From a virus, in the IMG/VR virus record IMGVR_UViG_3300025929_000042, positions 1 through 29,116 of that record: DNA of 29,116 nt. One strand, written 5' to 3'. Shown piece by piece: positions 3,821 to 28,849 of the stretch (the stretch's first letter is position 1; each line of letters starts with the position of its first letter). The position numbers were made by a program, and so were the translations under genes. The notes below the pieces were generated by a model. That model searched no databases, was not told where the DNA came from, and saw only the letters and a program-made list of their open reading frames with translations.

Positions 3821-4339
3821 CTAGTCCTTTGCGCACACTGCCGCTGGCTGCGGCCCGTCCTGTGTGACGACCGTCGTCGTCACGACGTGATAGCCATCCG
3901 GGCACGCCGGTCCAGCCGGGCCGGACGGTCCCGGATCACCCTTCGGGCCCTGCACGCCAGGCGGCCCCTGCGGGCCCTGAGAGCCGTCCTTGCCGGGCTG
4001 CCCAGCCGCGCCCGCCGCACCGGACGGGCCCGCCTTCCCCGGCGCGCCTGAGGCGCCCGGAGCGCCACTGACGCCCGGACGGCCCGACGCGCCCGGTGCC
4101 CCCGGAGTGCCTGGCGTGCCCGGCGTACCGGGAGACCCCGGTGAACCCGACGGGCCCGGCTCCGGCTTCGGAGACTTCAGCGGCACACCACCGAGCCGCT
4201 CTACCTGCTGCGACAGCATTCGGTTGTCGTGCTGCAACTCCTGGACGCTCGCCACAGCCCACGCCCCCAGCAGCAGGAACGCGCCGACCAGTAGGAACAC
4301 GCCCAGGTTTCGCCGCGCGAACCGCACCCGCTCAGCCAT
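3821..4339 (-). CDS. Membrane-anchored collagen-like protein
   Basis: The protein is built like a type II membrane protein: a basic N-terminus, one membrane segment (about residues 13-31), a short coiled-coil-prone stretch (32-50) and a Pro/Lys linker. An unbroken run of 28 Gly-X-Y triplets (residues 62-145) follows, then a 27-residue C-terminal knob with Cys146 and Cys169. Gly-X-Y runs form collagen triple helices, and the coiled coil could nucleate trimerisation. Collagen-like repeats are common in phage tail fibres, but the membrane anchor points to a cell-surface or envelope role. The ATG overlaps the upstream stop (TGATG); a GTG one codon earlier is an alternative start. It is coupled to the small coiled-coil membrane protein before it and may assemble with it. 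Confidence 0.72.
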
Positions 4340-4650
4340 CACTTGCCGCCCTTGAGCTGCAGCAGGATCCCCACCAGGAACAGCAAGCCCGGAATGACGC
4401 CCGCATAGATCGCCTGCCGCCAGTTCGTGCCCTGCCCCGCGACCTCGGCCTTGACCTCCCGGACGGCCTCCTTGCGGGCCAGCTTCTCCTCGGCGATGTC
4501 CCGCTCGATCTCGGCGAGCCGCCGCTCGATCTCCGTCCGGTCCCGGGTGTACAGATCGACGGATACGACCCGCAGGCCCAGCTCGCGGAGAGTCTGCTCG
4601 ATGCTGCTGAGACGTCGCACGATCTCGGCCGTGGTGTAGTCATCGGCCAC
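4339..4650 (-). CDS. Coiled-coil protein with C-terminal membrane segment
   Basis: This 103-aa protein has a long charged helix with heptad spacing (about residues 8-70) and one hydrophobic segment near the C-terminus (about 80-98) ending in a short basic tail. Small tail-anchored coiled-coil proteins of this build are frequent in actinophage lysis regions, where they are often listed as holins or membrane proteins. The GTG start has a GAGGGGG Shine-Dalgarno sequence four bases away. It is followed by the collagen-like membrane protein with a one-base TGATG overlap. It may be a second holin, an antiholin or a spanin-like scaffold. The sequence does not decide between these. Confidence 0.65.
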
Positions 4651-9448: not shown

Positions 9449-9946
9449 TCAGACGAGGCTCAGCGTGACGGTGAGCTGCCATGTGCTGCCGGACGCCTTG
9501 GTGCCGAGGCTTTCGGCCTTCCGGTTCAGCATCCGGCCGGCGGCGCTGGCGTTGAAGATGCCCCATTCGTTCCACGCGAAGTTCGCGTCCGAGGACCCGA
9601 ATGTTGCCCGGAAGGTGATCTGCTCGCTGCCGCTGGTGGTGCCGTCGGTGTGGGTTGGGTACGTGGAGTCCATGGCCTTGCGGAGGGTGCTGCCGCCCAG
9701 CAGGTCCGTCTGCGTCTGCGCCGCCGCGGTGGAGCTGTTGCCGACGCCGAGGTAGGCGTTGGCGTTGCTGAACGCCGTAATCGCGGTGCCGATGAGGCGT
9801 TCCCACAGCGCGGACGCGCCACCGTAGGTGAGGGCGTTCCCTTCGATCTCCAGCACCTCGAAGGGGTCGTCGCGGGCGAAGGCCTGGTCGTCGGCGTACT
9901 TGCGGACGATGGTGCGGCACCGCCAGCGGATCACTTCGTGGGCCAC
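9449..9946 (-). CDS. Minor tail protein following the tape measure (165 aa)
   Basis: The protein has a beta-rich core typical of tail-fibre or distal tail modules: LTYGGASALWERL, a NANAYLGVGN turn, a TYPTHTDGTTSG stretch and WNEWGIFN. Such sequences are common in actinophage virion proteins next to the tape measure gene. The GTG at 9944-9946 is placed by a GGGGAG Shine-Dalgarno sequence six bases upstream and lies 16 bases inside the end of the tape measure gene, implying coupled translation. In-frame sequence further upstream is the antisense-like reading of that gene's repeat region and is not coding. The position suggests a tail-tip component, but no specific role can be assigned. Confidence 0.7.
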   Translation of the reverse strand: MAHEVIRWRCRTIVRKYADDQAFARDDPFEVLEIEGNALTYGGASALWERLIGTAITAFSNANAYLGVGNSSTAAAQTQTDLLGGSTLRKAMDSTYPTHTDGTTSGSEQITFRATFGSSDANFAWNEWGIFNASAAGRMLNRKAESLGTKASGSTWQLTVTLSLV

Positions 9947-12900
9947 GGTGCTCTCCCCGCTCTGCTCAGCATGTCCAGGCTCTTGGCGAGCCAGTTCTGC
10001 AGCTCCAGTTGGGAGCCGATGGCGCCGTAGTTTTGGAGGGTCAGCTTCACGACGACGGACTGTGCGGCGTAGGCGCCGTCGCCGCCGACCGTCACGCCGT
10101 AGTGGCCGGGGCCGTAGGCGACCCCGTAGTGGGAGGGGCCGACGGCGACGCTGTACTCCGACGGGCCGTATGCCACCCCTGAATGCGACGGGCCGACGGC
10201 GACGCCAGAGTGCGAAGGGCCAACGGCTACGCCGGAGTGCGAGGGGCCGTACGCGACGCCGGAGTGGGAAGGGCCGTAGGCCACGCCGGACTGTGAAGGC
10301 CCGTACGCCACTCCGGAGTGGGAAGGCCCATAGGCGACGCCGGAGTGCGAGGGGCCGTACGCCACACCAGAGTGAGACGGGCCGACCTTCGTGGTGGTGA
10401 GGAGCCCCTGGTTGATGGCCTCTAGCAGCAGCCCGTGCTGCTTGGCCTCCGGTGCCCGTACCACGAACTCGTCGTGGCTGGCTGCGATGACGTTGCGGTC
10501 GCGGCCCGACTTGCCCTTCACCCACCCGCCGGTCGCGAACCCGGGGATGCCCAGGCCGCCCGGGTCGCCGGCGAGGCCGAGGAGCTTGGCGAGCATCATG
10601 TCGCGGCCGCCCTGCCGCTGGATCGCCCGCTCCCCGAGCCGGCGGTCTTCGAGGGTGATGGCGCCCCCCTGGGCTTTGCGCGGGTAACCCCACCATTCCC
10701 CGCCACGCACGCTGGTTTCCCGGACGACCGCGCCGGTGTGCGGCGCCTCGATGATGCGGCCGTTCCCCGCGTACAGGTAGGTGTGGCCCGGGTGGGGCTG
10801 CCCGACCGCGCCCGGGATCGGTGACCCGATCGTCCGCAGCGCCTGCCGCTGGGTGTAGGTGGTGCGGGTGATATCGATGCCGGCGCCGTGCTTCCACGCC
10901 CACCAGGTCAGCCCCGAACAGTCGAACGCGTTCGGCCCCGTCGCGCCCCACACGTACGGCTTACCGATCTGCGCCCGGGCCGCCGCGACCACCGGGCCGC
11001 CCGAGCCGGCGGCCTTCTTCCACTCGGCGGCCATGGTGTCGCCGATCTTCTTGATGAGCCCGGCGATGCCGTCGTCGATCGGCCGCATCACTGTGGACAC
11101 CTGACCGGACCCGGCGAAGTTCACCGGGCCGCCCGTCGCGAACCCCTGTAGCTGGCCGCGGCGGGCGAGGGCACGCATCCGCAGCATGGCGCCGTGGCCG
11201 CCGACCGCGCGGACTTCCTCGGGCGTCCAGACGTGCTCGTTGACGCGCAGGATCGCCGGCACCGAGTCGTACGCTTCAGTCGACTCCGGGCCGATCGCTG
11301 GGACCGGACCACCCGCAGCCAGGCCGGGGATGCGGCGCGACGGGTCATGCGCCGTCGTCCACAGGCCCTTGGCGTTGACGGTGATGTTGGCCTTGCGGTC
11401 TTTGATCTTGTTCAGCTCTTTCCAGAGCTGGTTCGCCTTGCTGCGGGCGATGCCCATCGCATCCGCAGCCCGCAGGAACGCGGAGCGGGACACGTTCGTC
11501 GCGCCGGTCGCGTTCCCCGTCGCACGCGCCAACGCGTCCACCTGGGCGCGGGCAGCCTGGTTGCGGCCGGCGAGGGCGTACAGCACGGGCAGGGCGGCCT
11601 GCACGCGCGCGTTGTAGCCCTGCTGTGCACCCGCGGCGCCGTCGGTGCGGAGCGCCTGGATGCGGGCCTGGTTCGCTGCGTCGGTGACCCGCTTGATGTA
11701 GGTGGACAGTGCCCCCGAGCCGGTGTTCGTCGCGCCGGTGAGCCGCTGGTAGGCGGCCCACAGTTGCTCGGCGCGGGTCCGGGACCCGAGCATCGCGGTG
11801 GCCTGGGCGATGAACGCAGCCTTCGACACGTTCAGTTGGCTGGTGTTGATGCCCAGCGACGTGGCCAGCGCATCCACCTGCGCTTTCGCCTCACGGTTCC
11901 TGCCGGCGAGCGCGTACAGCAGCGGGAGCTGTTGGATGACAGCGTTGCGGGCGGCGTCCATGTTGTGGGTCCGCTGGAACTCCGCCGTCGCCAGGTCCTT
12001 CACCGAGGACAGCTGCTGGGCGAACGCCTGCCGCAGTTGCAGGCTGGCTTGGGAGTTGCCCTTCAGCGACCCGGACGCTTTCCCGATCTGGTCGGCGAGC
12101 TGCCGGTACCCCTCCCGCATCTGCGTCGTCGCCTGGAACACCGCCAGGCTGGGGTTGAAGGCGCCGTCGAGCGCGGCGGTCAGAGCGGTGACCCGGTCCT
12201 TCATCGCCAGCGCGGAGTTCGCCGCGTTGTCGAGAGCGAGCTTGATCGCCTGGGTCGGGTCTTTCGCGGCCTGGACCGCCGCCTCGTAGTTCTGGATCTT
12301 CGCCGTGGCTTCGGTCGTCAGGTGCCCCGTCTTGTCCAGGCTCTTGGACAGGTCAACGCCGGCGGCGGTCGCGAGGTCGAGCGCCTGGTCGCGGGTAATG
12401 CCGTACTTCTCGCTGAGCAGGTCCGCGCCGTCCTGGACGCGGTTCATCGCCGCGCGTTCCTTGTCGAGCGCGTCCTGGGTTTCCCGCAGGCTCTTGGTCA
12501 GGGCGCCGACCGCTCGGTTCTGCGCGTCCGTCGGGTTTTGCGAGTCCCGCTGCGCCTGCGTCAGCCCTTGCGTGGCCTTGATCAGCTGGTTGTTCAGGAC
12601 GTCGGCCTGCTTCTGCAGTTGACCGATGAACTTCTCGCGGCCGGCCAGGTTGTTGGCAGTGGCACCCGACTCGATCCGCATCGTGTCGATCAACTTGTCG
12701 GTCGCCGACTTGGCGTTCAGCGCCCGGCTCGCGAAGACGAACAGCGCGGCTCCGGCGGCGATGTAGATCGCCGGCCCGGCCGCTGCGACCAAGTTGAGGC
12801 CGCGCTGCGCCAGCGTCATACCCCGCGTCGCCGCCACTCCCTCACGGATCCGGCCCGACAGCCCGGCAACACCGCCGACCAGCCCCGTGATCGGGGCGCG

Positions 12901-13914
12901 GAGGAGGAGGCTGGAGATGACCAGCTGCGACAGCAGCGGTGAGAAGTGCGCGGCTGCGTTCGCGGCGCCGAGCATCCCGCGCGTCGCCGACAGCAGGGTG
13001 GTGCCGAGCGGGAGCATGTCGTTGGCGAGGGTGACCACCGTGGACCCGGCTGACGCGGCCGCGGCACCGAAGTCGTCGAGGGCTTGGGGTGCGTTCGCGC
13101 CGGCCTGGTCGATGAGGCGCTTCATGTCCTGCCCGGCGATGAACCCGCCGATCCGGGCACCGAAGCCCTGCACCGCCACCGAGGAGTTGTCGAGGGCCCG
13201 CGTCAGGTTCGGCATCAGGGACTGGGCGTCGGCGACGACGTTGTTGAACGCCGACAGGGCTTGCGGCTCGTAGGAGGCGGCGAGGTTGTGGTAGTTGTCG
13301 GCGAGCTGGGTGGCCAGCACCGCGGACGCTTTCTGTTGGTCGTCGAGGGTCTCCCACTTCCCCGCGAGGTCGGCGGTGGCGTTGACGACCGGGATGATCG
13401 AGGACGCGGCAACGGCAGCGAACCCCGACAGCGACACCACCGCGGCGGTCGCGGCCGGCGCTATCGCAGTCGCGGCCGCCACCAGCGTGCCGATCCACCC
13501 CGCGGTGGTCGCGCCGCCCTCCGCCCCGGACGCCACCGTGCGCATCAGCGTCCGCCGGAAGTTCTCCTGCGACCGTTGTGATTCGTCGGTGGAGCGGCGG
13601 TTCCGCTGGTTCGACTCGGTGTTCCGGTCGGTTTCCTGCGTCTGCCTGCGCGTCTCATCCGTCGACCGGCGGGTCTGCTGGTTGGACTGCTGCTGGCTTC
13701 GTGTCCGCTCCCGCTCCACCCCCAGCAACTGCGCCATCGCCTGCGCGAGCCGCGCCGCGCCCCGCTCGGACGCTTCGAAGTCGGAGCCGCCCTGCCCGTT
13801 CGCGCGGCGCATCTCATCCGACACGTTGCGGGTCGCGGCCTGTGCGGCGCGCATCGCAGCGATGTAGGCGGTGACGTCCGCCCGCAAAGCAACGGAGACT
13901 GTACGGTCCGCCAT
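9931..13914 (-). CDS. Tape measure protein with NlpC/P60 domain and C-terminal repeats
   Basis: At 1327 aa it is by far the longest protein, with the helical Gln/Ala-rich start, central hydrophobic segments (about residues 140-200 and 330-400) and long helices typical of tape measures, which set tail length. Two homologous modules of about 113 aa (around residues 652-765 and 765-840) share LYALAGRN and AQVDALA. Residues about 975-1080 are an NlpC/P60 peptidase domain: Cys999 in FDCSG, His1044 in GHTYLYAG and His1059 in IEAPH. It could cut wall peptides at injection. Eleven 9-aa repeats (GPSHSGVAY type) occupy 1178-1276. The start has a GAAGGGGGTG Shine-Dalgarno sequence and follows the frameshifted tail chaperone gene by 15 bases. 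Confidence 0.93.
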   Translation of the reverse strand: MADRTVSVALRADVTAYIAAMRAAQAATRNVSDEMRRANGQGGSDFEASERGAARLAQAMAQLLGVERERTRSQQQSNQQTRRSTDETRRQTQETDRNTESNQRNRRSTDESQRSQENFRRTLMRTVASGAEGGATTAGWIGTLVAAATAIAPAATAAVVSLSGFAAVAASSIIPVVNATADLAGKWETLDDQQKASAVLATQLADNYHNLAASYEPQALSAFNNVVADAQSLMPNLTRALDNSSVAVQGFGARIGGFIAGQDMKRLIDQAGANAPQALDDFGAAAASAGSTVVTLANDMLPLGTTLLSATRGMLGAANAAAHFSPLLSQLVISSLLLRAPITGLVGGVAGLSGRIREGVAATRGMTLAQRGLNLVAAAGPAIYIAAGAALFVFASRALNAKSATDKLIDTMRIESGATANNLAGREKFIGQLQKQADVLNNQLIKATQGLTQAQRDSQNPTDAQNRAVGALTKSLRETQDALDKERAAMNRVQDGADLLSEKYGITRDQALDLATAAGVDLSKSLDKTGHLTTEATAKIQNYEAAVQAAKDPTQAIKLALDNAANSALAMKDRVTALTAALDGAFNPSLAVFQATTQMREGYRQLADQIGKASGSLKGNSQASLQLRQAFAQQLSSVKDLATAEFQRTHNMDAARNAVIQQLPLLYALAGRNREAKAQVDALATSLGINTSQLNVSKAAFIAQATAMLGSRTRAEQLWAAYQRLTGATNTGSGALSTYIKRVTDAANQARIQALRTDGAAGAQQGYNARVQAALPVLYALAGRNQAARAQVDALARATGNATGATNVSRSAFLRAADAMGIARSKANQLWKELNKIKDRKANITVNAKGLWTTAHDPSRRIPGLAAGGPVPAIGPESTEAYDSVPAILRVNEHVWTPEEVRAVGGHGAMLRMRALARRGQLQGFATGGPVNFAGSGQVSTVMRPIDDGIAGLIKKIGDTMAAEWKKAAGSGGPVVAAARAQIGKPYVWGATGPNAFDCSGLTWWAWKHGAGIDITRTTYTQRQALRTIGSPIPGAVGQPHPGHTYLYAGNGRIIEAPHTGAVVRETSVRGGEWWGYPRKAQGGAITLEDRRLGERAIQRQGGRDMMLAKLLGLAGDPGGLGIPGFATGGWVKGKSGRDRNVIAASHDEFVVRAPEAKQHGLLLEAINQGLLTTTKVGPSHSGVAYGPSHSGVAYGPSHSGVAYGPSQSGVAYGPSHSGVAYGPSHSGVAVGPSHSGVAVGPSHSGVAYGPSEYSVAVGPSHYGVAYGPGHYGVTVGGDGAYAAQSVVVKLTLQNYGAIGSQLELQNWLAKSLDMLSRAGRAPWPTK
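10087..10383 (-). repeat. Eleven 27-bp tandem repeats in the tape measure gene
   Basis: Eleven in-frame units encode GPSHSGVAY or variants. The first eight are nearly identical in protein but differ at third codon positions, so the DNA is not homogeneous. The last three (toward 10087) have drifted, with Tyr or Glu replacing Ser or His. Silent divergence suggests the peptide is under selection rather than being a recent slippage product. Length variation by recombination between units is still likely. Confidence 0.95.
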
Positions 13915-27013: not shown

Positions 27014-27054
27014 GTCCGCCCACCGGGACCCCTCATAGAACCCGGTGGGCGGAC
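27014..27054 (-). terminator. Perfect 14-bp inverted repeat, terminator-like
   Basis: Arms GTCCGCCCACCGGG (27014-27027) and its exact complement (27041-27054) enclose a 13-base loop. It lies 111 bases after the HTH gene and 32 bases before the methyltransferase-like gene start. A terminator of the HTH transcript is the simplest reading. A regulator binding site or part of a packaging site are alternatives, as the hairpin lies on the side of the terminase gene where such a site may be sought. Confidence 0.6.
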
Positions 27055-27165: not shown

Positions 27166-27435
27166 TCAGGCGGCGGTCTCGTCGACCGCGAAGGGGTACG
27201 CCTCGGGGCGGTCGCACTCAGGTTCGGTGCTGGTTCCGCTGCGGTTGCGGCGCCCGGCCTGGTTGGAGAGTTTGACGGCGGCGACGAGGTCGACGAGGAC
27301 GGCGCCGGTGCGAGGGTGCCGCATCTTGTCGATGCGTCCGTCGGCGGCCCAGTTGCGTATGGTCCGCTTCGGGCGGCCGGCGGCGAGAGCGGCGTCGGCG
27401 ATGGGCCGGAACCGTGCGGGGATGTTCTGGGGCAC
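27166..27435 (-). CDS. Small HTH (MerR/excisionase-like) DNA-binding protein (89 aa)
   Basis: The protein opens with a helix (PARFRPIADAAL), then RPKRTIRNWAADGRIDKMRHPRTGAVLVDL, which is the winged-HTH pattern of MerR/excisionase proteins: turn helix, W-x4-G-x-I, then a wing. The tail is hydrophilic. I choose the GTG at 27433-27435 because GAGGGG lies six bases upstream; another GTG two codons earlier is too close to it. Possible roles are excisionase, small terminase or gene regulator. The protein lies near the terminase, but I cannot decide. Its message begins with a leader hairpin. Confidence 0.72.
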   Translation of the reverse strand: MPQNIPARFRPIADAALAAGRPKRTIRNWAADGRIDKMRHPRTGAVLVDLVAAVKLSNQAGRRNRSGTSTEPECDRPEAYPFAVDETAA

Positions 27436-27451
27436 GGCCACCCCCTCGGCG

Positions 27452-27487
27452 GGAAAGGGAAAGGCTCAGCCGGTGTGGGCTGAGCCT
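27452..27487 (-). terminator. Leader hairpin ahead of the HTH gene
   Basis: Arms AGGCTCAGCC (27462-27471) and GGCTGAGCCT (27478-27487) pair perfectly around a six-base loop, followed on the minus strand by TTCCCTTTCC. It has the shape of an intrinsic terminator. A promoter lies about 45 bases upstream and the HTH gene begins about 17 bases downstream, so it may act as an attenuator, or may close the transcript of the upstream genes. Confidence 0.6.
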
Positions 27488-27532: not shown

Positions 27533-27562
27533 ATAATGACTTAACGGATTTAGTGGTGTCAA
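27533..27562 (-). promoter_or_regulatory. Minus-strand promoter (TTGACA-N18-CATTAT)
   Basis: TTGACA (27557-27562) matches the -35 consensus exactly, and CATTAT (27533-27538) matches four of six -10 bases, 18 bases apart. The region is unusually AT-rich for this window. Transcription would start near 27525, pass through the leader hairpin and reach the HTH gene and perhaps the methyltransferase-like gene. Confidence 0.6.
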
Positions 27563-27860: not shown

Positions 27861-28223
27861 CTAGGCGGCGAGCATGGCGGCGGCGGCGGAGTGGTAGCAG
27901 GAGTGCTTGCCGCGCAGGCCGGCCGGGCAGTTGCAGGTGTTCGCCGCGGTCAGGTAGCGGTCGGTGCCGTTGCTGGAGACGACCTGGAAGACCCTGCGGC
28001 CGCGGACGGGGACGATCGCCTTGTCGGCGATGAGCTGGCGGGCCTTGTCGACGGTGGTGGTCTTGAAGCCGGCGGCGTGGGCGGCGTCTTCGCGGCGCTT
28101 CTCGCGCCAGCAGCGGTCGCCGTAGCCGCGGGTGATGGAGCGGGGGTTGGTGAGCAGGGCCCGGCACCGGCGGCAGTTCCCCGTCTTGGTGGTGGTCCGC
28201 TTCGCCGTCGCAGCCTTCGTCAT
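27861..28223 (-). CDS. DUF6011 plus SWIM zinc-finger protein (120 aa)
   Basis: Two zinc-binding modules are visible. The first is a DUF6011-type motif with Cys17-x2-Cys20 and Cys38 in CRRC and GYGDRCWRE. The second is a SWIM finger, Cys97-x-Cys99-x9-Cys109-x-His111. The middle has KARQLIADK and a VFQVVSS strand. SWIM fingers bind DNA or proteins. A promoter with its -10 seven bases before the ATG suggests a leaderless message, and no Shine-Dalgarno sequence is present. The protein faces the HTH gene pair across the operator cluster, which points to early control. Confidence 0.75.
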   Translation of the reverse strand: MTKAATAKRTTTKTGNCRRCRALLTNPRSITRGYGDRCWREKRREDAAHAAGFKTTTVDKARQLIADKAIVPVRGRRVFQVVSSNGTDRYLTAANTCNCPAGLRGKHSCYHSAAAAMLAA

Positions 28224-28282
28224 GCCAACTATGTTAGCCAACCGAGTTGGCAATGACAAGTGAGTTGGCTATTGGAGTTGGC
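28224..28282. promoter_or_regulatory. Cluster of five GTTGGC sites between divergent genes
   Basis: Five GTTGGC units occur within 59 bases: reversed at 28224-28229 and 28237-28242, forward at 28246-28251, 28264-28269 and 28277-28282. Four are AGTTGGC. The second and third form the palindrome GCCAAC-CGA-GTTGGC (28237-28251), which fits between the -35 and -10 boxes of the leftward promoter. TTGGCCAA at 28278-28285 adds a further palindrome. This is a strong operator candidate. The plus-strand HTH protein next door is the likeliest binder, which is inference. Confidence 0.65.
28231..28259 (-). promoter_or_regulatory. Leaderless promoter TTGTCA-N17-TAACAT
   Basis: TTGTCA (28254-28259) matches five of six -35 bases and TAACAT (28231-28236) four of six -10 bases, with the ideal 17-base spacer. 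The -10 ends seven bases before the ATG of the DUF6011/SWIM gene, so the transcript would start at the A of the ATG. A palindromic operator fills the spacer. Confidence 0.65.
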
Positions 28283-28304
28283 CAATCCGATGTACCCTCC
28301 CGGT

Positions 28305-28535
28305 ATGGACGAAGAGCACTACGCCAGAGTCGACAAGCTCCGCGACAAACTCAGGAGCGCCGAGGCCCAGGTAGACGAGATCCGCACCGAGTTCCACTCC
28401 GCGATCCGCGACGCCTTCCCCGAGACCCACGGCCAGCCCACCAAGCGCGGCGTACTCGCAGAGGTGTCCCGCCGCTCCGGCTACAGCCGCGAGCACGTCG
28501 CCCAAATCAGAGACGGGAAGGCCACCGTGCAGTGA
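28305..28535 (+). CDS. Small HTH protein with coiled coil (76 aa)
   Basis: The N-terminal half is a charged coiled coil (KLRDKLRSAEAQVDEIRTEF) and the C-terminal half is a helix-turn-helix: KRGVLAEVSRRSGYSREHVA followed by QIRDGK. This looks like a small dimeric DNA-binding protein. It is divergent from the DUF6011/SWIM gene and next to the GTTGGC cluster, so autoregulation and control of the neighbour are likely. The ATG at 28305 lacks a Shine-Dalgarno sequence, so it may be leaderless. It overlaps the next gene as GTGA. Confidence 0.7.
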   Translation: MDEEHYARVDKLRDKLRSAEAQVDEIRTEFHSAIRDAFPETHGQPTKRGVLAEVSRRSGYSREHVAQIRDGKATVQ

Positions 28536-28849
28536 GCACCCCTCACATCCCCCCGTCGCCAAGGCGGAGAACTCAACCTCGCGAGTACCGAGCGGCGCTG
28601 ATCGCTGCGCTCACCGCCCGGGCAGAGCAGGAGCTCGGCATCGAGGATGACCTCACCGAGAAGCTCGGCACCATCCGAACGAACGCCGCCGGCTTCGACG
28701 CATTCAGTGCGGGCTACCAGATCGCCTGGTGGCTGGTGAAGTACGCCGCTGAGGAGTTGGGACGCCCGGAGCTGGAGATCATTCGGGAGTTGGCGCTGGA
28801 CTCGGCCGCGGGCACGGATCAGGAGCAACGCGAGGCCGACGGCGAGTGA
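28532..28849 (+). CDS. Hypothetical helical protein (105 aa)
   Basis: A basic start (PSPRRRTQPREYR) leads to a helical, acidic body with a FSAGYQIAWWLVKYAAEELG segment and a hydrophilic tail. No family is recognised. It is coupled to the HTH gene by a GTGA overlap, with GGGAAGG about ten bases ahead. It may be a partner or effector of the regulator. Confidence 0.6.
   Translation: MSTPHIPPSPRRRTQPREYRAALIAALTARAEQELGIEDDLTEKLGTIRTNAAGFDAFSAGYQIAWWLVKYAAEELGRPELEIIRELALDSAAGTDQEQREADGE

What the first reader, a model, noticed from the sequence alone, without database searches (positions are those of the whole stretch)
28224..28304. Leaderless promoter with a palindromic operator inside its spacer and five GTTGGC sites
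The leftward promoter TTGTCA-N17-TAACAT ends seven bases before an ATG, so the message would have no leader. The 15-base palindrome GCCAAC-CGA-GTTGGC fills the spacer, and three more units extend toward the divergent HTH gene. This looks like a compact genetic switch with an adjacent regulator.
Basis: partly seen in the sequence, partly recalled or inferred. Interest (0 to 1): 0.6.

Follow-up and report, generated by a model that had tools for sequence, protein, structure and literature searches.

The report
Self-regulating divergent promoter of phage regulator
Between two back-to-back genes of an actinobacterial phage lies a row of overlapping DNA-binding sites that very probably belongs to the small regulator encoded next door, and the same layout recurs in related plasmids, viruses and bacterial genomes, marking a little-noticed family of self-controlled regulators.

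Summary
The window has a leftward promoter TTGTCA-N17-TAACAT seven bases before an ATG, a perfect 15-bp palindrome in its spacer, and five GTTGGC sites within 59 bp; simulated windows reach at most three. One detail is off: two sites, not three, lie toward the HTH gene; the fifth lies between the -10 box and the left ATG.

Relatives found by similarity of the 76-aa protein show that the array travels with that protein while the gene across the divide changes. Most carry 15-bp operators (GYSAAC-N3-GTTSRC) repeated at a 13-bp pitch: 23 such pairs in the first 12 loci, against 0.06 in shuffles. A -10 box ends 6-7 nt before the start codon in 31 of 32 regulator genes, against 2 of 48 control ORFs, so the regulator gene also looks leaderless. 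AlphaFold2 gives a long helix plus HTH (pLDDT 92).

Best reading: the 76-aa protein binds the array as dimers, occludes both divergent leaderless promoters and controls itself. Binding, repression and start sites are not shown experimentally. New variant of a known kind: a conserved operator grammar of a small, apparently undescribed regulator family (PHROG 686-like) on actinobacterial mobile elements.

The parts
27861..28223 (-). Left gene: 120-aa DUF6011 / SWIM-like zinc protein, ATG 28223-28221, leaderless by spacing
   Evidence: Pfam DUF6011 2.2e-8, SWIM weak 0.031; relatives L002 72% and L131 about 50% identical
28231..28236 (-). Leftward -10 box TAACAT, 7 nt before the ATG
   Evidence: sequence; scan; L131 has TAAGCT at the same 7 nt
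28254..28259 (-). Leftward -35 box TTGTCA, 17-bp spacer
   Evidence: conserved TTGTCA in L003, TTGCCA in L131, TTGACA in most other loci
28224..28238 (.). Operator O1 GCCAAC-TAT-GTTAGC (11/12), covers leftward -10 box
28237..28251 (.). Operator O2 GCCAAC-CGA-GTTGGC (12/12), in the leftward spacer
28255..28269 (.). Operator O3 GACAAG-TGA-GTTGGC (10/12), covers leftward -35 box
   Evidence: same in L003
28268..28282 (.). Operator O4 GCTATT-GGA-GTTGGC (9/12), 13 bp from O3
28281..28295 (.). Weak operator-like O5 GCCAAT-CCG-ATGTAC (8/12), runs into the rightward -10 box; below the 9/12 threshold
   Evidence: L003 has GTAAAC-CCG-GTGTAC (9/12) at the same place
28293..28298 (+). Rightward -10 box TACCCT, 6 nt before the regulator ATG; no clear -35 box
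   Evidence: TACGCT-6-ATG in L003, TACCCT-6-GTG in L131
28305..28535 (+). 76-aa regulator: long helix plus C-terminal HTH, leaderless by spacing
   Evidence: PHROG 686 5.9e-7; AlphaFold2 pLDDT 92
28532..28849 (+). 105-aa ORF of unknown function overlapping the regulator stop, probably same message
   Evidence: ORF list; no Pfam or PHROG match

Best explanation
The 76-aa protein encoded at 28305 is the ligand of the array. It dimerises through its long N-terminal helix and places two HTH units in the two halves of GCCAAC-N3-GTTGGC. Dimers load side by side on overlapping palindromes at a 13-bp pitch (O1/O2 over the leftward promoter, O3/O4 and weak O5 toward its own). This occludes the -35, spacer and -10 of the leftward promoter and the region of its own -10 box, so the protein represses the DUF6011 gene and itself. 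Both messages start at or within a base or two of their start codons (leaderless), which lets operators lie right up to the ATG. Shown: the array, its conservation with the protein, the spacing rule, the -10-to-start distance, a confident monomer model. Inferred: dimerisation, binding, repression, start sites.
For: Operator kept with the regulator while the left gene changes: L003 and L131; DUF6011 relative L002 lies by different repeats. 13-bp pairs 23 versus shuffle 0.06 in 12 loci, 7 versus 0.04 and 7 versus 0.03 in later loci, 0 in 48 control upstreams. Held-out plasmid loci L181-L184 fit in whole or part. NANNNT 6-7 nt before start in 31 of 32 regulators versus 2 of 48 controls. Helix plus HTH model, pLDDT 92. 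Leaderless mRNAs common in the hosts' phylum (PMC4895711; PMC4633059).
Against: No binding or expression data. The operator pattern was written after reading the first loci; single-locus palindromes are often not significant. Two of six held-out loci fit only weakly or not at all (L185, L186). No known regulator fold matched confidently. Occlusion is inferred from position; activation of one promoter is not excluded.
Confidence: 0.68

Rival explanations
1. The 76-aa protein binds the array but does not simply repress both sides: at low level it activates its own weak promoter, which has no good -35 box, while repressing the leftward one, as RcoLS20 does on plasmid pLS20 and CI does on lambda.
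For: No clear -35 box at the rightward promoter; operators lie just upstream of its -10 box; precedent in pLS20 (PMC4207663).
Against: 26 of 31 relatives have TGn before the -10 box, which can replace a -35 box, and operator-like sites often reach into the -10 region at about -20.
Confidence: 0.18
2. The array is read by another protein (a separate phage repressor outside the window or a host regulator), and the 76-aa protein does something else.
For: The record is a 29-kb fragment and no canonical repressor gene is seen in it; the array has never been tested.
Against: Arrays of the same build lie upstream of the relatives of this protein in many genera and with many neighbours, with half-site letters that differ between members; a host factor would not track one small protein so closely.
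Confidence: 0.1
3. The repeats are a partition-like or architectural site bound by the small protein, with the promoter overlap secondary.
For: Arrays of short repeats bound by small HTH proteins occur in partition and excision systems (general knowledge).
Against: Sites are locked to two promoters and to the start codon in the family; no partition ATPase or integrase was recognised next to the array in the window.
Confidence: 0.04

Closest known systems
PHROG 686 'HTH DNA binding protein' (phage protein family)
   Same: Sequence match of the 76-aa protein (5.9e-7) and of 9 of 11 members; small proteins of similar predicted fold in mycobacteriophages
   Different: The PHROG 686 member matched in phage Stinger lies inside an operon without such an array; no operator or function is given for the family
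Lambda OR region (divergent PRM/PR with leaderless cI; general knowledge)
   Same: Several operators between two divergent promoters, the regulator read from a leaderless message, operators overlapping promoter boxes
   Different: One small regulator instead of CI and Cro; 15-bp sites overlapping at a 13-bp pitch; unrelated protein as far as the searches reach
RcoLS20 switch of plasmid pLS20 (PMC4207663)
   Same: Overlapping divergent promoters controlled by the adjacent regulator through multiple sites
   Different: RcoLS20 is tetrameric and loops two operators; here one short array and a 76-aa protein, looping not indicated
Leaderless genes of actinobacteria (PMC4895711, PMC4633059)
   Same: TANNNT -10 box just before ATG/GTG; about 21-25% of transcripts
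   Different: Here nearly every member of one regulator family shows the signature, combined with an operator array

Membership tests
PHROG 686 HTH DNA binding protein | profile match over most of the protein | tested here: met
   5.9e-7, residues 4-73 of 76, profile 11-73 of 76; 9 of 11 members
Autoregulated divergent operator region | repeated palindromic sites overlapping both promoters, conserved with the adjacent regulator | tested here: met
Autoregulated divergent operator region | the adjacent regulator binds the sites and changes transcription | not testable with these tools
   needs gel shift, footprint and reporter assays
Leaderless gene | -10 box ending 6-8 nt before the start codon | tested here: met
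   window left gene 7 nt, regulator 6 nt; 31 of 32 relatives at 6-7 nt
Leaderless gene | mRNA 5' end at the start codon | not testable with these tools
   needs start-site mapping
Lambda-type CI/Cro switch | two antagonistic repressors sharing the operators | tested here: inconclusive
   left gene is DUF6011/SWIM-like, not a repressor by profile; its function is unknown and the record is a fragment
Described HTH families in Pfam or NCBIfam (Xre/Cro and others) | match to a curated HTH model | tested here: not met
   no HTH model matched the window protein or most members at E 0.1; fold matches weak and mixed

The most novel reading that the evidence does not exclude
An undescribed family of very small coiled-coil/HTH regulators controls neighbouring genes on phages, plasmids and chromosomal elements across actinobacteria through one portable cassette: overlapping 15-bp operators at a 13-bp pitch between two promoters, with a leaderless regulator gene. 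Dimers would load around the helix as a short cooperative filament. Half-site letters drift between members (GTTGGC, GTTCGC, GTAGGC, GTTTCGC), giving a natural set of separate regulator-operator pairs and immunity groups.
Probability: 0.4. Interest if true: 0.65.

Novelty: new variant of a known kind. Interest (0 to 1): 0.5.

Why it matters
If right, proteins of 65-77 residues with an operator code that can be read from sequence control genes on many actinobacterial mobile elements. Targets and compatibility groups could then be predicted, and separate regulator-operator pairs picked as genetic parts for actinobacteria. The family-wide leaderless start also helps gene calling: one relative (L185) is unannotated and another (L184) has a doubtful annotated start.

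Tried and rejected
A 14-base pattern from the promoter (TTGTCATTGCCAAC) hit 120 mostly unrelated viral stretches; only the L003 relative was informative. A 22-base operator pattern found only L003's record and one chance coding match, L124. The first genome scan with two near-identical proteins found nothing. Nucleotide search of the phage collection found nothing. A tempting recognition code (Gln in the HTH with GTTGGC, Lys with GTTCGC) held in the first loci, but L181 and L183 both have Arg there, with GTTCGC and GTTGGC respectively, so it was dropped. Palindrome score alone is not significant in most single loci; the family-wide spacing is. No solved structure stood out. Paper searches for the motif GTTCGCGAAC, for 'RRQRL motif' and for DUF6011 found no paper; the library lacks most subscription journals, so absence there is weak evidence of novelty.

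Full report
What is there. Around 28220-28310 two genes point away from each other: a 120-aa DUF6011/SWIM-like gene to the left (ATG 28223, Pfam 2.2e-8) and a 76-aa gene to the right (ATG 28305). The leftward promoter TTGTCA-N17-TAACAT ends 7 nt before its ATG, and the perfect 15-bp palindrome GCCAAC-CGA-GTTGGC (28237-28251) fills 15 of the 17 spacer bases. Five GTTGGC lie in 59 bp, where 300 simulations of the window never exceeded three.

Relatives. The 76-aa protein has one viral relative at 65% identity (L003), nine loci in genome contigs (L131-L139: Amycolatopsis MAG, Streptosporangium, Nonomuraea, Nocardia, Streptomyces), relatives on Streptomyces, Nocardia and Rhodococcus plasmids and more distant ones in sampled actinobacterial genomes (11 of 344, 13 of 251, 5 of 249 and 5 of 251 genomes at E 0.001, source genomes included). 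The family is sparse, as expected of mobile elements. The window protein matches PHROG 686 (5.9e-7; 9 of 11 members) and no curated HTH model.

The array belongs to the regulator. L003 keeps the palindrome, the following AATGACAA and the next GTTGGC, but has another left gene. L131 keeps five GTTGGC, a DUF6011 partner and exactly the same AGTTGGC between its -10 box and ATG. L002 carries a closer DUF6011 relative (72%) beside a strongly diverged regulator-like ORF and quite different repeats (TCAGTGTCGAC/GTCGACACTGA). On Streptomyces plasmid L130 the gene across the divide is an RRQRL zinc-binding protein, on Nocardia plasmids a DNA cytosine methyltransferase. The operator stays with the regulator while the neighbour changes.

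Spacing rule. Scoring GYSAAC-N3-GTTSRC (12 scored positions), the window has sites at centres -74, -61, -43 and -30 (11, 12, 10 and 9 of 12) and a weak one at -17 (8 of 12); steps 13, 18, 13, 13. Across the first 12 loci there are 50 sites of 9/12 or better (shuffles 5.2, maximum 12) and 23 pairs exactly 13 bp apart (shuffles 0.06, maximum 1). Loci fetched later give 7 and 7 such pairs against 0.04 and 0.03, and 48 control upstreams in the same loci give none. The pattern was written after reading these loci, so a fairer test used six loci fetched afterwards with the pattern fixed: L181, L183 and L184 fit, L182 largely fits, L185 has one perfect GTTGGC palindrome, L186 has none. Palindromes with a 3-bp centre are also enriched as such (46 against 17.5).

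Leaderless starts. A box NANNNT ends 6 or 7 nt before the chosen start codon in 31 of 32 regulators and almost never at other distances, against 2 of 48 control ORFs (Fisher 1e-18). In 26 of 31 the box is preceded by TGn, an extended -10; the window, L003 and L131 lack TGn but have a box that begins with TA. Some start codons were picked by eye and relatives are not independent, so the P value is only indicative. In S. coelicolor the -10 motif is TANNNT and about 21% of mRNAs are leaderless (PMC4895711); [quoted passage not shown]

Protein. AlphaFold2 with 11 sequences gives helix 3-36, a short helix, then an HTH (50-58, 62-69), mean pLDDT 92, pTM 0.71. No confident PDB match was found; BFVD neighbours include 63-69 aa mycobacteriophage DNA-binding proteins at probability 0.98-1.00 but E 0.05-0.3. 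The dimer is inferred from the palindromes and the long helix, not modelled.

Mechanism. In the window, O3 covers the leftward -35 box, O2 the spacer and O1 the -10 box, while O4 and weak O5 run toward and into the regulator's own -10 box. In other loci a near-consensus leftward promoter (TTGACA-17/18-TAnnnT) has its -35 box in an operator arm. Occlusion of both promoters by the regulator is the simplest reading; activation of the rightward promoter at low level, as with RcoLS20 (PMC4207663), is the main rival. Neighbouring sites that share a GC at 13 bp would put dimers on different faces of the helix, as in a short spiral; this last step is conjecture.

Limits. Nothing here shows binding, repression or start sites. 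'Switch' is justified only in the loose sense of a regulated divergent promoter pair. The parts are of known kinds; what seems new is the family-wide combination, and the literature search was limited to open papers.

Noticed in passing
27533-27562 and 27462-27487: A second leftward promoter-like site, TTGACA-N18-CATTAT, followed by a 10-bp terminator-like hairpin (AGGCTCAGCC...GGCTGAGCCT) before the HTH_17/excisionase-like gene 27166-27441; could be an attenuated leader.
   Followed up: no
27014-27054: Perfect 14-bp inverted repeat GTCCGCCCACCGGG / CCCGGTGGGCGGAC near the 5' end of the methyltransferase-like ORF, upstream of the terminase gene.
   Followed up: no
9931-13914 (-), C-terminal part: The tape-measure-like protein ends in many near-identical 'GVAYGPSHS' repeats.
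   Followed up: no
3821-4342 (-): Collagen-like Gly-X-Y repeats in a 173-aa ORF among the tail-side genes.
   Followed up: no
L185 about 1090-1374: Rhodococcus plasmid pR09L01 has an unannotated regulator relative with a perfect GCCAACGGAGTTGGC and TAAGCT-7 nt-ATG upstream.
   Followed up: partly
L002 241-364: A DUF6011 relative sits across from a diverged regulator-like ORF; two GTCGAC centres there are also 13 bp apart, with different letters.
   Followed up: partly
L181, L183, L184, L134: On Nocardia plasmids or contigs the gene across the array is a DNA (cytosine) methyltransferase.
   Followed up: no
L160, L161, L162, L170: Distant relatives have TGCC/GGCA-type repeats upstream instead of GTTGGC, with the same -10-to-start spacing.
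   Followed up: no
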